From positions 1 to 34,620 of the forward strand of contig JAGYNU010000005.1 of the NCBI GenBank assembly GCA_018399975.1: DNA of 34,620 nucleotides, read 5' to 3'. Below are positions 9,637 to 34,601 of this stretch, piece by piece; position 1 is the first letter of the stretch; the number at the start of each line of letters is the position of its first letter. Made by a program: the position numbers and the translations under genes. The notes below the pieces were generated by a model that had not been told where the DNA came from, did not search any database, and saw only the letters and a list, made by a program, of their open reading frames with translations. The DNA is from Candidatus Omnitrophota bacterium (GTDB lineage Bacteria; Omnitrophota; Gorgyraeia; M55B152).

Positions 9637-9716
9637 TAGCTCATAGCTCATAGTAAAACAAGCTACAAGCTACAAGTTGCAGGTCGCAGGTAACAAGTAA
9701 CAAGTTGCAGGTAACC
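9637..9716. repeat. Degenerate heptamer array
   Basis: agctcat-agctcat, then aagctac-aagctac-aagttgc-aggtcgc-aggtaac-aagtaac-aagttgc-aggtaac. Confidence 0.85.
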
Positions 9717-9741
9717 CCGTAGAAATAAAAATTTCACGGGG
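9715..9741. repeat. Hairpin (inverted repeat)
   Basis: CCCCGTAGAAAT-AAAA-ATTTCACGGGG with one bulged base. Confidence 0.7.
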
Positions 9742-9846
9742 CAGGCAAGATACAAGAAACAAACAAACAACAAATTTCTAATTGCTCTAATTAACCTAAT
9801 TGATCTAAAGCAAGTAGGAAGTAACAAGTAGCAAGACATAGGACAT

Positions 9847-9925
9847 AGCCCGTGAACCAGGGATTTATTTTATAAATCACGGTTCAGGGCTAGGGTGAAC
9901 CGTACTTCGTTCTGGTTCCCCCTAG
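9847..9925. repeat. Two abutting hairpins
   Basis: AGCCCgtGAACC...GGTTCaGGGCT and CTAGGGtGAACC...GGTTCccCCTAG. Confidence 0.75.
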
Positions 9926-10030
9926 GACATAGGACATGAGAATAACAAATGTCAAATCAGGCTGCAGGCTACAGGCTGCAAGCTATCTGAAGTTAAGGAA
10001 AATTAGGACATAGGACATAGGACATGAGAA
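9924..10030. repeat. Heptamer arrays AGGACAT and AGGCTRC
   Basis: aggacat-aggacat; aggctgc-aggctac-aggctgc-aagctat; aggacat-aggacat-aggacat. Confidence 0.8.
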
Positions 10031-10109
10031 TGACAAATTACAATAACCAAACAAAAGTATTAGTTTGAATATTAAATAATTGTATCTTGATCATTAATCT
10101 GTGATAATC

Positions 10110-10129
10110 CCTGCCTGCCGGCAGGCAGG
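10110..10129. repeat. GC-rich palindrome copy 1
   Basis: cctgcctgccggcaggcagg, perfect palindrome. Confidence 0.9.
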
Positions 10130-10164
10130 TGTGTAGCTTTTAAAAATCTGTGATAATCTGTGTT

Positions 10165-10215
10165 TGCCGGCAGGCAGGCGAATGAGGACACCACTTAGTG
10201 AACGCCTGCCCGCCA
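10165..10215. repeat. GC-rich palindrome variant (copy 2) with distal arm
   Basis: tgccggcaggcaggcg ... cgcctgcccgcc. Confidence 0.65.
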
Positions 10216-10245
10216 ATGTTTGTGGCAGAATACAAAAAAGATGTT

Positions 10246-11544
10246 ATGAATAAAAATGTTAAATTAAAGATTAAAGAATCGTATCCAGAGAGAGTACTGG
10301 ATATTTTAAACTTGGTATCAAATATAGCAGAAAATAGAAAAGGTAGAGTTTTCTTAGTAGGAGGTATGGTTAGGGATTTATTATTAGATAATCCTAGTAT
10401 AGATTTAGATATTGCAGTAGAAAGACAGGGTATAGAATTTGCCAAAAAGCTTGCTTTTACTTTAAAGAAAAAGATAAACATTTATCCTAAATTTTATACA
10501 GCTTCGGTAAAAATAGATAATAATTTAAGCATAGATATTGCTACTTGCCGTAAAGAGACTTATGCTAAACCCGGAGCTTTGCCTGAAGTTGAGCCTTCAG
10601 ATATAAAAAATGATTTATTTAGAAGGGATTTTACGATTAATGCTATAGCTTTAAGTCTTAATAGTAAATCGTTTGGAAATATATTAGATTTTTGTAATGG
10701 GATAGAAGATTTAAAAAATGGTCGTATTAGAATTTTACATAATGATAGTTTTAAAGATGACCCAATTAGAATTTTAAGAGCAATTAGATTTATAGGAAGG
10801 TTAAATTTTAGGCTTGATAGCCATACTGAAAAATTAATGATTGATGCTATAAAACAAGACAATTTTAAGAATGTAAGTAAAGATAGGATAAGAAAAGAAT
10901 TAATATTATTTTTTAAAGAGGAAAATTTTTTAAAGCAAGTTGATGTTTTTGATAAATATTTAGGTTTAAATTTTATTTATAAAAGTATAAGAAAAGAATC
11001 AGTAGATAAAAAGCTATTAAAGAATGTAGAACGATATCTAAAACAATATAAACAAAATGTAAACACAAATAAAGCAGATGTGCCTGTATCCAATTATAAA
11101 TGGGTTGTTAGGCTTATGGTATTTGTTAGAAATTTGCAATTAAACGAGATTAATGAATTGTGTAAAAATTTTAATTTTTCTAAAGAGGTCAGTAATAAGT
11201 TAAAAAATTACAAAAAGCTTCAGTCGATTGTCTTAGAAAAAGCTAAAAAATTTAAAAAAGCTAAACCCGGAGAAATATATAATATTTTAAATCCTTTTGA
11301 TATAGAAGCAGTTTTTGTTATAATGTCAGCAATTAAAGATAAAGAGATTATTGCTAAGATATGGCGTTTTGTTATAAAAGACAGGTTTATTAAACTTGAT
11401 ATTAATGGTAAGGATTTAAAAGAATTAGGAATTTCTCCAGGGCCAGTTTTTAATACTGTTTTAAATAAAGTTTTGTGTGCTAAAATAGATGGTGAGATTT
11501 ATAGCAAGAAAGATGAGTTAAATTTTGTAAAAAAATTTATTTGA
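10246..11544 (+). CDS. Class II tRNA nucleotidyltransferase (A-adding or CCA-adding type, with flexible loop)
   Basis: FLVGGMVRDLLL, SIDLDIAVE, CRKETYAKPGALPEVEPSDIKNDLFRRDFTINAIA, DDPIRILRAIRFIGRLNF; ATG at 10246 preferred because the 10198 start lies in repeat sequence. Confidence 0.88.
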   Translation: MNKNVKLKIKESYPERVLDILNLVSNIAENRKGRVFLVGGMVRDLLLDNPSIDLDIAVERQGIEFAKKLAFTLKKKINIYPKFYTASVKIDNNLSIDIATCRKETYAKPGALPEVEPSDIKNDLFRRDFTINAIALSLNSKSFGNILDFCNGIEDLKNGRIRILHNDSFKDDPIRILRAIRFIGRLNFRLDSHTEKLMIDAIKQDNFKNVSKDRIRKELILFFKEENFLKQVDVFDKYLGLNFIYKSIRKESVDKKLLKNVERYLKQYKQNVNTNKADVPVSNYKWVVRLMVFVRNLQLNEINELCKNFNFSKEVSNKLKNYKKLQSIVLEKAKKFKKAKPGEIYNILNPFDIEAVFVIMSAIKDKEIIAKIWRFVIKDRFIKLDINGKDLKELGISPGPVFNTVLNKVLCAKIDGEIYSKKDELNFVKKFI

Positions 11545-28521: not shown

Positions 28522-28645
28522 TATATTTTAATATTGTATTTTGATGTTGACTTTTATTGTAGTTTAAGTTATCATATTAACAGTTTGATGTCAACTTAGT
28601 TTTAATATGTATTTTTTTAATTTTCAAGTAAGGAGGTGTAGGTGC

Positions 28646-28975
28646 ATGGGAAAGTTTATAGCAGTTATAGGTGGATTAATAGCTATTATTTTAGGCGTTA
28701 TAGGCATAGTAGTATGGTGGCCTGAATTTGTTTTAGTTCTTAAAGGGATTGTTCCTGCATTTTTAGTATTAGTAGGTTTAATTGCTTTAATTGCTGGAAT
28801 AGGAGAAATAAAAGATACTATGGCCAGGAAAAAAGAAGAAAAAAAAGAAGAAGTTACAGAGACAGAATCTCCTGAAGCAGAAAAGAATAAAGAACAGGAT
28901 GAAAGTAGCGAAGCAAGTGAAAGTTCTGAAGAAACTTCAGAAGAGTCAGAAGAAACCGAAGAATCTGAAGAATAA
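28646..28975 (+). CDS. Small two-helix membrane protein with acidic low-complexity tail
   Basis: AGGAGGTG ribosome-binding site at 28631-28638 then ATG at 28646; two hydrophobic helices followed by a Glu/Ser-rich tail. Confidence 0.7.
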   Translation: MGKFIAVIGGLIAIILGVIGIVVWWPEFVLVLKGIVPAFLVLVGLIALIAGIGEIKDTMARKKEEKKEEVTETESPEAEKNKEQDESSEASESSEETSEESEETEESEE

Positions 28976-29068: not shown

Positions 29069-30523
29069 ATGGAAATAAAAAATATAAAAAATAAATTACG
29101 TGATTTATATAATCAAGCTTGTAAAGAAGATGTATCTATATATATAGTTGGCGGTTTTATTAGAGATTTAATGATGGGGTATGATTTAAGTAAAAAAATA
29201 GATATAGATTTTACATTAAATACAAATATAGCTTCGTTTACCAAAAAAGTATCTGATAAATTTAAAGCTGATTATATTATCTTAAACAGAGATTTCAATA
29301 CGATTAGGATTATTATAAGAGATTTTGATTTTGATTATCAGATGGATTTTACAGAATTTAAAGGTAAAACAATCCAAGAAGATTTATATAAACGTGATTT
29401 TACAGTTAATGCAGTAGCAATAGAATTAGGCAAATTTTTAAATGCTAAGTCAAAAAAAGATTTAAGAAAATATTTGATATATCCAACTAATACCTTAAAA
29501 CATTTTTGTAACAAAAAGATAGTTTCTGTTAATTCAAATTCCTTAATTGATGATTCTTTAAGGATGCTTAGAGCTTTTAGTATAGGAGCACATCTAACTT
29601 TTGAAATAGAAAAAAATACTTTAAGAGAAATTAATGAAAATAAAATGGCTATACATAAAATTTCTTTTGAAAGGATAAGAGATGAAATCTTTAGATTGTT
29701 ATCAACAGATAATTCTTATAAATATATTTTGAAGATGGCCGAAACTGGTTTATTCGATGAAATTTTCCCTGAATTAAAAAATGGGAAAAATATTGAACAA
29801 GGGCCTTATCATAAATTTGATGTTTATTATCATAGTTTGGAGTGTATCAAACAATTTGAAAGTATTTTAGGTAAAATTTATCAAGATGATTATTTAAGGG
29901 TAAGATTAAAAAAAATTTTAGAGGATTATATATCTGGGTATAGGTCCCAAAAAGCTTTATTAAAATTAGCTTTACTTTATCATGACGTTGGAAAACCCAA
30001 TGTTAGATTTATAGAAGATGGTAAAATTAAGTTTTGGGGGCATGAAAAAGTTAGTCAAGATATAACCGAAGAAATGGCTAAAAGATATAGATTATCAAAT
30101 GCTGAAATGAAGAGTTTAAAAAATATGGTTTATAACCACATGCGTCCAGGGCATTTAGTAGAACAAAAAGAATCAACAAAAAAAGCACGTTATAGATTTT
30201 TCAAAGATGCAGGGCTTAATACTCCCTTAGTAATCTTGCTTTCTATTGCAGATAAATATGCAACTGCAGGAGAACTTATAACCAAACAGTCTATGAGGGA
30301 TCATGAAAAGTTCTTGATCAAATTACTTAAAGAATATTTTCATATTCAAGAAAGAATTGAACCTGAAAAATTAATAGATGGTAATGACATAATGAAGATT
30401 TTAGATATTAAGCCTTCTCCTATGGTTGGCAAAATAATTGAGGAAGTAGAACTTTTGCAAATGCAAAATAAAATAAAAAATAAAAAGCAAGCTATTGCTT
30501 TTATAGAAAAGTATAAAATATAA
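29069..30523 (+). CDS. Class II tRNA nucleotidyltransferase with HD domain, flexible loop absent (CC-adding candidate)
   Basis: IVGGFIRDLMMG, KIDIDFTLN, FTEFKGKTIQEDLYKRDFTVNAVA, DDSLRMLRAFSI, HD domain LLYHDVGKPNVRF...WGHEKVSQD. Confidence 0.85.
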   Translation: MEIKNIKNKLRDLYNQACKEDVSIYIVGGFIRDLMMGYDLSKKIDIDFTLNTNIASFTKKVSDKFKADYIILNRDFNTIRIIIRDFDFDYQMDFTEFKGKTIQEDLYKRDFTVNAVAIELGKFLNAKSKKDLRKYLIYPTNTLKHFCNKKIVSVNSNSLIDDSLRMLRAFSIGAHLTFEIEKNTLREINENKMAIHKISFERIRDEIFRLLSTDNSYKYILKMAETGLFDEIFPELKNGKNIEQGPYHKFDVYYHSLECIKQFESILGKIYQDDYLRVRLKKILEDYISGYRSQKALLKLALLYHDVGKPNVRFIEDGKIKFWGHEKVSQDITEEMAKRYRLSNAEMKSLKNMVYNHMRPGHLVEQKESTKKARYRFFKDAGLNTPLVILLSIADKYATAGELITKQSMRDHEKFLIKLLKEYFHIQERIEPEKLIDGNDIMKILDIKPSPMVGKIIEEVELLQMQNKIKNKKQAIAFIEKYKI

Positions 30524-30766: not shown

Positions 30767-30795
30767 TTGACTTTCGTAATTTTATATAGTATACT
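30767..30795 (+). promoter_or_regulatory. Sigma70-type promoter for micropeptide 1
   Basis: TTGACT (30767-30772), 17-bp spacer, TATACT (30790-30795). Confidence 0.65.
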
Positions 30796-30824
30796 TATTG
30801 TGAATCACAAACAGGAGAAAAAAA

Positions 30825-31004
30825 GTGAAAAGAAAATTTTTTTTCTTATTAATTCTAATGATTTTTGTGACATACTGGATAATATGGCCTGTTGAAAGCT
30901 GTTTATCTACAAGTGCTTCTCCTACAGTGGGTAGCGGAAATGGGGGATGCAGTATGGGCCCTATCAATTTCCAATTCAGTGGTTCATTTCAATGCCAGCA
31001 GTAG
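30825..31004 (+). CDS. 59-aa secreted/membrane-anchored micropeptide 1 (not in ORF track)
   Basis: GTG start after AGGAGA; MKRKFFFLLILMIFVTYWIIWPVESCLSTSASPTVGSGNGGCSMGPINFQFSGSFQCQQ; paralogous to 31303-31482. Confidence 0.75.
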   Translation: MKRKFFFLLILMIFVTYWIIWPVESCLSTSASPTVGSGNGGCSMGPINFQFSGSFQCQQ

Positions 31005-31229
31005 TAATCCTTTCCAATTTCTAACCTTATTTTTACATATATTGTAATAATTTTTCAAATTTCGTGTTATATAAATAAAGAAGTTGAATTTAAATGTTAA
31101 AATATTTTTAAGGTTATATATAAATTTTACAGTTTTTGTATTTTTTTGTTTTTTTATAATAAAAATTTTATTTTTATAATTACTTAATAATTAAAGGTTT
31201 ATATATAAAAATATAAAAATATACTAATT

Positions 31230-31245
31230 TGGCATTCTATTTGCT
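31230..31245 (+). promoter_or_regulatory. Candidate sigma54 (-24/-12) promoter for micropeptide 2
   Basis: TTGGCATTCTATTTGCTT: GG at 31231-31232 and GC at 31243-31244 separated by exactly 10 nt, as in TTGGCACG-N4-TTGC. Confidence 0.5.
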
Positions 31246-31302
31246 TTTATTATTATTAAAAAGAAGATAAATTTTTTTACTTCACAAGGGAGGTGAAGAA
31301 AA

Positions 31303-31482
31303 ATGAATAAAAAATGGTTTTTATTATTACTGCTTATTGCTTTTGTAATATACTGGATGGTATGGCCTGTTGAGAATTGTCAAGCTACAGGGGCATCTCA
31401 GGTAACTCCGGGGAGCGGTGGTGGTTCTGGTTGTGATCTTGGTCCTGTCCAATGGCAACTGGGTGGCAGCACTAATATGTAG
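31303..31482 (+). CDS. 59-aa secreted/membrane-anchored micropeptide 2 (not in ORF track)
   Basis: ATG after GGGAGGTG; MNKKWFLLLLLIAFVIYWMVWPVENCQATGASQVTPGSGGGSGCDLGPVQWQLGGSTNM; paralogous to 30825-31004. Confidence 0.82.
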   Translation: MNKKWFLLLLLIAFVIYWMVWPVENCQATGASQVTPGSGGGSGCDLGPVQWQLGGSTNM

Positions 31483-31508: not shown

Positions 31509-31545
31509 AAACCCCTCGTTTATTTTAAACGAGGGGTTTTTATTG
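31509..31545 (+). terminator. Strong Rho-independent terminator after micropeptide 2
   Basis: Perfect 13-bp stem AAACCCCTCGTTT/AAACGAGGGGTTT, 5-nt loop, followed by TTATT. Confidence 0.88.
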
Positions 31546-33485: not shown

Positions 33486-34085
33486 ATGAAGAAAGTATTA
33501 TTACATATATGTTGCGGAGTATGTGCTGCCGGGATAGTAGAAAGGCTTCGTGAGGAAAATTATGAAGTTACTGGTTTTTTTTATAACCCTAATATACATC
33601 CTAAAGAAGAGTATGCCAAAAGATTAGAATCTGCAAGAAAAATTGTAAATCATTTTAATTTTCCTATGATAGAAGGAAAGTACAATAAAAAGGATTGGTT
33701 TTATGAAATTAAAGGATTAGAAAAGGAACCAGAGGGTGGAAAGAGATGCAGCAAATGTTTTAAAATGAGGCTTAAGGAAACTATGGAATATTTCAAGGAA
33801 GGTGGATTTGATTTTTTTACTACTACACTTACTATAAGTCCTCATAAAAATGCAGCAGAAATAAATAGAATTGGAAGACAAATAAGCGAATTTAAGTTTT
33901 TAGAGAGAGATTTTAAAAAAAAAGAGGGGTTTAAAAAAGCTATACAAATTTCTAAAGAATTAGATCTTTATAGACAAAATTATTGCGGATGTGTGTTTAG
34001 TCGGAGGACAGATGACAGAAAACAGAAGACAGAAGACAGAAAACAGAAAATAGATGGCAGAAGACAGAAGATTATAGATTGTTAG
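33486..34085 (+). CDS. queH: Epoxyqueuosine reductase QueH (DUF208) with repeat-derived C-terminal tail
   Basis: LLHICCGVCAAGIVERL, GFFYNPNIHPKEEYAKRLE, GGKRCSKCFKMRLKET, FTTTLTISPHKN, YRQNYCGCVFS. Confidence 0.9.
   Translation: MKKVLLHICCGVCAAGIVERLREENYEVTGFFYNPNIHPKEEYAKRLESARKIVNHFNFPMIEGKYNKKDWFYEIKGLEKEPEGGKRCSKCFKMRLKETMEYFKEGGFDFFTTTLTISPHKNAAEINRIGRQISEFKFLERDFKKKEGFKKAIQISKELDLYRQNYCGCVFSRRTDDRKQKTEDRKQKIDGRRQKIIDC
34008..34080. repeat. AARACAG-type heptamer array inside queH 3' end
   Basis: aaaacag-aagacag-aagacag-aaaacag-aaaatag-atggcag-aagacag. Confidence 0.9.
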
Positions 34086-34553: not shown

Positions 34554-34601
34554 ATAAATCCCCGTTCGGATAAATCCCCGTTCGGATAAGTCCCCGTTCG
34601 G
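34554..34601. repeat. Three tandem 16-bp repeats near window end
   Basis: ataaatccccgttcgg x2 plus ataagtccccgttcgg. Confidence 0.9.

What the first reader, a model, noticed from the sequence alone, without database searches (positions are those of the whole stretch)
30825..31482. Paralogous pair of unlisted 59-aa secreted micropeptides with a shared YWxxWPVExC...GSGxG..GC..GP signature
Seen directly: two short ORFs below the ORF-track cutoff, about 300 bp apart on the same strand, each exactly 59 codons plus stop, each with its own ribosome-binding site. They share 15 of the first 26 residues (basic N-terminus, hydrophobic stretch, invariant FVxYWxxWPVExC), then a variable Ser/Thr/Ala linker, then a Gly/Ser-rich segment ending in Cys followed by GP. 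Conserved blocks with divergent linkers and tails suggest selection on a membrane-anchored or exported peptide, such as a signalling peptide, a Cys-linked surface peptide, or a RiPP-like precursor (the last is speculative; no modification enzyme is adjacent). I do not recognise the family.
Basis: partly seen in the sequence, partly recalled or inferred. Interest (0 to 1): 0.8.

Follow-up and report, generated by a model that had tools for sequence, protein, structure and literature searches.

The report
Orphan pair of exported micropeptides
Two neighbouring, duplicated tiny genes in an uncultured bacterium each encode a 59-residue peptide that is probably threaded through the cell membrane; they look real, but no relative was found anywhere searched, so their job is unknown.

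Summary
ORF A (30825-31004, GTG start) and ORF B (31303-31482, ATG) are each 59 codons and 54% identical (BLASTP E 4e-21). They arose by a local duplication (109 nt, 75% identical, including the RBS). Both look translated. The reading frame is conserved beyond neutral expectation (P about 0.001 or less), GC is 38-44% in AT-rich flanks, each has a Shine-Dalgarno site (B's among the strongest in the genome), promoter-like sites precede each, and a strong terminator follows B.

Each peptide has a basic N-terminus, one transmembrane helix, then about 35 exported-type residues without K, R or H and with two conserved cysteines. They are most likely N-in/C-out single-pass or secreted envelope peptides.

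No homologue turned up: no third copy in the genome, none in several hundred same-class or same-phylum genomes, GTDB contigs, viral contigs, phages, plasmids, Pfam, NCBIfam, PHROGs, PADLOC or PDB. No other order-mate is held, so absence says little about age. YcaO and C39 RiPP markers are absent, there is no canonical lipobox, and no type I toxin family matches.

Verdict: a real lineage-restricted paralogous pair, ordinary in kind, function untested.

The parts
30825..31004 (+). ORF A, 59 aa, GTG start, ends TAG TAA; exported micropeptide
31303..31482 (+). ORF B, 59 aa, ATG start, ends TAG TAA; paralogue of A (54% identical)
30813..30817 (+). Shine-Dalgarno AGGAG of ORF A (duplex energy as strong as the top quarter of larger ORFs)
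   Evidence: sequence
31286..31296 (+). Near-perfect Shine-Dalgarno AAGGGAGGTGA of ORF B; among the strongest of the genome's larger ORFs
31272..31301 (+). Predicted 5' leader hairpin of B that holds its Shine-Dalgarno in the loop and 3' arm; may gate translation or be chance (z -2.0)
   Evidence: start region as stable in 6% of genes
30767..30795 (+). Sigma-70-like promoter before A (TTGACT, 17 nt, TATACT)
   Evidence: consensus match only
31229..31256 (+). Sigma-70-like promoter before B (TTGGCA, 16 nt, TATTAT)
   Evidence: consensus match only; AT-rich region gives many
31509..31539 (+). Intrinsic terminator after B, 14-bp perfect stem
   Evidence: (z -6.6)
30813..30921 (+). First copy of the 109-nt direct repeat (75% identical to 31291-31399): trace of the gene duplication, including the RBS
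31291..31399 (+). Second copy of the 109-nt direct repeat

Best explanation
A tandemly duplicated, lineage-restricted gene pair, probably expressed from its own small transcription unit(s), encodes two 59-residue single-pass membrane peptides. Shown: protein-coding constraint, duplication, one hydrophobic helix, a basic N-terminus, a K/R/H-free tail, two invariant cysteines (C26 and C43/C44), RBSs and a terminator. Inferred: the N-terminus stays in the cytoplasm, the helix inserts through Sec/YidC, and the Gly/Ser/Asn/Gln tail lies outside the inner membrane, where the two cysteines may form a disulfide. There the tail stays tethered and acts as a small structural or accessory component of the envelope or of a membrane complex, with A and B as two versions of it.
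For: Pair similarity; neutral-scatter test; third-position excess and GC contrast; duplication including the RBS; strong SD of B; terminator; helix 3-29 at pLDDT about 83, tail mostly disordered; tail free of K/R/H, matched by only 59 of 48,396 genome windows; the two ORFs rank first and second of 105 genome small ORFs for an N-terminal helix followed by a G/S/T/C-rich tail.
Against: No homologue to confirm constraint beyond this pair. A conserved T-x-A-S at residues 29-32 could be a signal-peptidase I site, and a signal peptidase I is encoded, so the tail may be released instead of tethered. No partner gene is linked: the neighbours are tRNA-Phe, a CCA-type nucleotidyltransferase and MazG. 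dN/dS of about 0.5 shows only moderate constraint. The structure model is low-confidence overall (pLDDT 61).
Confidence: 0.5

Rival explanations
1. Secreted peptide: residues 1-31 are a cleaved signal peptide (T-x-A, then S) and a Gly/Ser-rich tail of about 28 residues with one conserved Cys is released, for example as a signal or antagonistic peptide.
For: T29, A31 and S32 are identical in both peptides and fit the -3/-1 rule as I know it; the genome encodes signal peptidase I.
Against: The hydrophobic stretch (about 17 residues) and the stretch from W21 to the site are long for a diderm signal peptide; A/S/T-rich linkers match the rule by chance; no receptor, transporter or immunity gene is linked; no C39 peptidase in the genome.
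Confidence: 0.28
2. Type I toxin-like hydrophobic peptides: small membrane-damaging proteins in tandem, silenced by an antisense RNA or by the leader hairpin of B.
For: Size, single helix, tandem duplication, intergenic home, and the SD of B in a predicted hairpin.
Against: No match to any Pfam or NCBIfam family, which include known type I toxins; no Rfam antitoxin; tail uncharged and Gly/Ser-rich; A has no comparable leader hairpin; antisense promoter-like sites are not credible in such AT-rich DNA.
Confidence: 0.1
3. RiPP precursors: the Gly/Ser/Cys tail is enzymatically modified.
For: GSGGGSGC-like segment recalls Gly-rich cores such as microcin B17 (from memory).
Against: No YcaO, no C39 peptidase; the only SPASM radical-SAM protein is on another contig without a nearby precursor; the N-terminal half is a membrane helix, not a soluble leader.
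Confidence: 0.04
4. Chance ORFs or decaying remnants of a duplicated sequence, not translated.
For: No homologue anywhere searched.
Against: Neutral-scatter test, intact length in both copies, RBSs, terminator.
Confidence: 0.04

Closest known systems
Lineage-restricted transmembrane or secreted small proteins, as catalogued in GMSC (PMC11364881; 15.3% of its families predicted transmembrane or secreted)
   Same: Under 100 aa, single-pass or exported, no assigned function, narrow distribution
   Different: Here a tandem paralogous pair supplies its own evidence of constraint; whether it is in that catalogue could not be searched
Hok/Gef, Ldr, Ibs and similar type I toxins
   Same: Small, N-in/C-out single helix, tandem copies in intergenic DNA; Hok also has a Cys after the helix (from memory)
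   Different: No profile match, Gly/Ser-rich tail almost without charged residues, no antitoxin RNA found
Small accessory subunits such as CydX
   Same: Single-helix micropeptide with aromatic residues in the helix
   Different: Not in an operon with a partner complex; no profile match; long exported tail

Membership tests
Type I toxins (Hok/Gef, Ldr, Ibs, TisB, Fst) | Match to a curated family profile | tested here: not met
   Pfam and NCBIfam: no match
Type I toxins (Hok/Gef, Ldr, Ibs, TisB, Fst) | Antisense or cis RNA antitoxin | tested here: inconclusive
   No Rfam hit besides tRNA; unknown antitoxins would be missed; promoter-like matches uninformative in AT-rich DNA
Type I toxins (Hok/Gef, Ldr, Ibs, TisB, Fst) | Toxic on expression | not testable with these tools
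   Needs an expression test in a laboratory strain
Bacterial lipoproteins | Lipobox [LVI][ASTVI][GAS]C with no D/E/K/R just before the Cys | tested here: not met
   C26 is preceded by V-E-S (A) or V-E-N (B); sequence
Type IV prepilin-like peptides | G followed by F and E at +5 ahead of the helix | tested here: not met
   No Gly before the helix and no E5 in either peptide
RiPP precursors | Modification or maturation enzyme linked or in the genome | tested here: not met
   YcaO and C39 absent; one unlinked SPASM protein. Lanthipeptide enzymes were not searched; genome is 89% complete
Signal-peptidase-I-cleaved secreted peptides | n/h/c regions and a -3/-1 site | tested here: inconclusive
   T-x-A then S conserved but the hydrophobic segment is long; SignalP not available
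Single-pass membrane small proteins | One hydrophobic helix with basic inside flank | tested here: met
   Hydropathy 2.7 and 2.9; helix 3-29; no K/R/H after residue 4
Known phage or defence proteins | Match to PHROGs or PADLOC | tested here: not met
   also no phage, plasmid or viral-contig relative

The most novel reading that the evidence does not exclude
A new family of duplicated secreted peptides used for cell-cell signalling or antagonism in an order of uncultured bacteria, with the conserved FVxYWxxWPVExC block as export signal and the Gly/Ser/Cys tail as the released peptide.
Probability: 0.12. Interest if true: 0.55.

Novelty: new member of a known kind. Interest (0 to 1): 0.27.

Why it matters
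It is a clean example of a real small-protein gene family below usual annotation cut-offs: the internal duplication gives evidence of coding constraint without any outside homologue. The sequence family itself is new to every library searched, but the kind (orphan exported micropeptide) is common, and nothing links it to a pathway.

Tried and rejected
Homologue searches by protein, profile and degenerate DNA pattern: own genome, 59 relatives, 384 same-class and 384 same-phylum genomes (the two draws overlap), GTDB contigs, IMG/VR, phages and plasmids, PDB. The weak hits and the ten pattern hits were translated and look like chance: interrupted frames or unrelated proteins. Ten is near the roughly 15 I estimate by chance for that pattern.

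Positional orthologues: 29 relatives' loci around the CCA-type nucleotidyltransferase and 29 around MazG hold no comparable small ORF.

Rfam found only the tRNA. No fold search was run because the model is low-confidence.

Full report
What was checked. ORF A (30825-31004) and ORF B (31303-31482) are present exactly as described, 59 codons each, same strand, 298 bp apart. Of the first 26 residues 15 are identical; over the whole length 30 of 56 aligned residues are identical, BLASTP E 4e-21. At DNA level a 109-nt direct repeat (30813-30921 and 31291-31399, 75% identical) starts 12 nt before each ORF, so a gene with its RBS was duplicated.

Are they genes? Yes, very probably. The two ORFs have 38% and 44% GC, against 15% between them and 20-24% on either side. 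Differences fall most often at third positions (28 against 19 and 14), and NG86 dN/dS is about 0.5. Scattering the same nucleotide changes at random gave 20-21 identical residues on average against 29 observed (P 0.0007 or less), and never reached the observed BLOSUM score in 3000 trials in either direction. B has a near-perfect SD, among the strongest of the genome's larger ORFs; A's is as strong as the top quarter. A perfect 14-bp terminator stem follows B. Promoter-like sites lie at suitable distances before both, but the region is AT-rich and such matches are weak evidence. B's leader can fold into a hairpin that holds its SD (z -2.0); A's start is not similarly structured, so regulation by this hairpin is only a possibility.

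What do they encode? Each peptide starts with a basic end (MKRK, MNKK), followed by a hydrophobic helix (residues 3-29 in the model, pLDDT about 83), then P-V-E-x-C and a Gly/Ser/Thr/Asn/Gln-rich tail. After residue 4 neither peptide has a single K, R or H; only 59 of 48,396 windows of that length in the genome's larger ORFs are like that. By the positive-inside rule (established knowledge) this predicts N-in/C-out export. Two cysteines are invariant (C26 and C43 or C44). The lipobox rule is not met (V-E-S-C, V-E-N-C). T29-x-A31-S32 is kept in both and could be a signal-peptidase I site; a signal peptidase I is encoded. Tethered versus released therefore stays open; I favour tethered because of the long helix.

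Relatives. The window is contig 55 of a 1.18-Mb, 89%-complete genome; no other genome of its order is held. No third copy exists in the genome. No relative was found in 384 same-class genomes, 384 same-phylum genomes with a profile, GTDB contigs by protein or by the YWxxWPVExC pattern (with chance-like hits inspected), viral contigs, phages or plasmids, Pfam, NCBIfam, PHROGs, PADLOC or PDB sequences. Nor is there a positional counterpart near the CCA-type nucleotidyltransferase or MazG in relatives. Neighbouring proteins of these relatives are only about 35-45% identical, so a 59-aa fast-evolving peptide could easily be missed; absence does not show that the family is young.

Function. No linked partner gene suggests one: the neighbours are tRNA-Phe, a CCA-type nucleotidyltransferase, MazG, a radical-SAM protein and QueH. 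RiPP biosynthesis is unlikely: YcaO and C39 are absent, and the single SPASM protein is unlinked. A type I toxin is possible but has no positive evidence beyond size and topology. The best reading is a duplicated small envelope peptide with an extracytoplasmic tail.

Verdict. The interpretation as an exported peptide is supported; the claim of a wider family is not. Orphan exported micropeptides are common (GMSC, PMC11364881), so interest is modest.

Noticed in passing
window 28607-28975 (+): A 122-aa membrane protein (MGKFIAVIGGL...LIALIAGIGEIKD) with an acidic tail upstream of the CCA-type nucleotidyltransferase; shorter 73-aa relatives lie beside the same enzyme in other members of the class (L049 3084-3305 -, L057 3099-3320 -), so it is a conserved small gene of unknown function.
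   Followed up: partly
window 9658-10179 and 34007-34071; many other contigs of the genome: Dispersed arrays of short imperfect repeats, often with 7-base-like units (TAGGACATAGGACGTAGG, TTTCGTCATTCGTCATTC, GACAGAA), scattered through the genome; one runs into the 3' end of the QueH gene and gives a repetitive DDRKQKTEDRKQK tail.
   Followed up: partly
window 10198-11544 and 29069-30523: Two CCA-type nucleotidyltransferase genes about 18 kb apart; the first best matches the A-adding tRNA nucleotidyltransferase model (below its cut-off), suggesting split CC- and A-adding enzymes.
   Followed up: no
window 31272-31301: Hairpin that holds the Shine-Dalgarno of ORF B; a start region this stable is seen in only about 6% of the genome's larger ORFs. 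Possible translational control, or chance.
   Followed up: partly
window 34554-34601: Three near-perfect tandem copies of a 16-nt unit (ATAAATCCCCGTTCGG) at the contig end.
   Followed up: no
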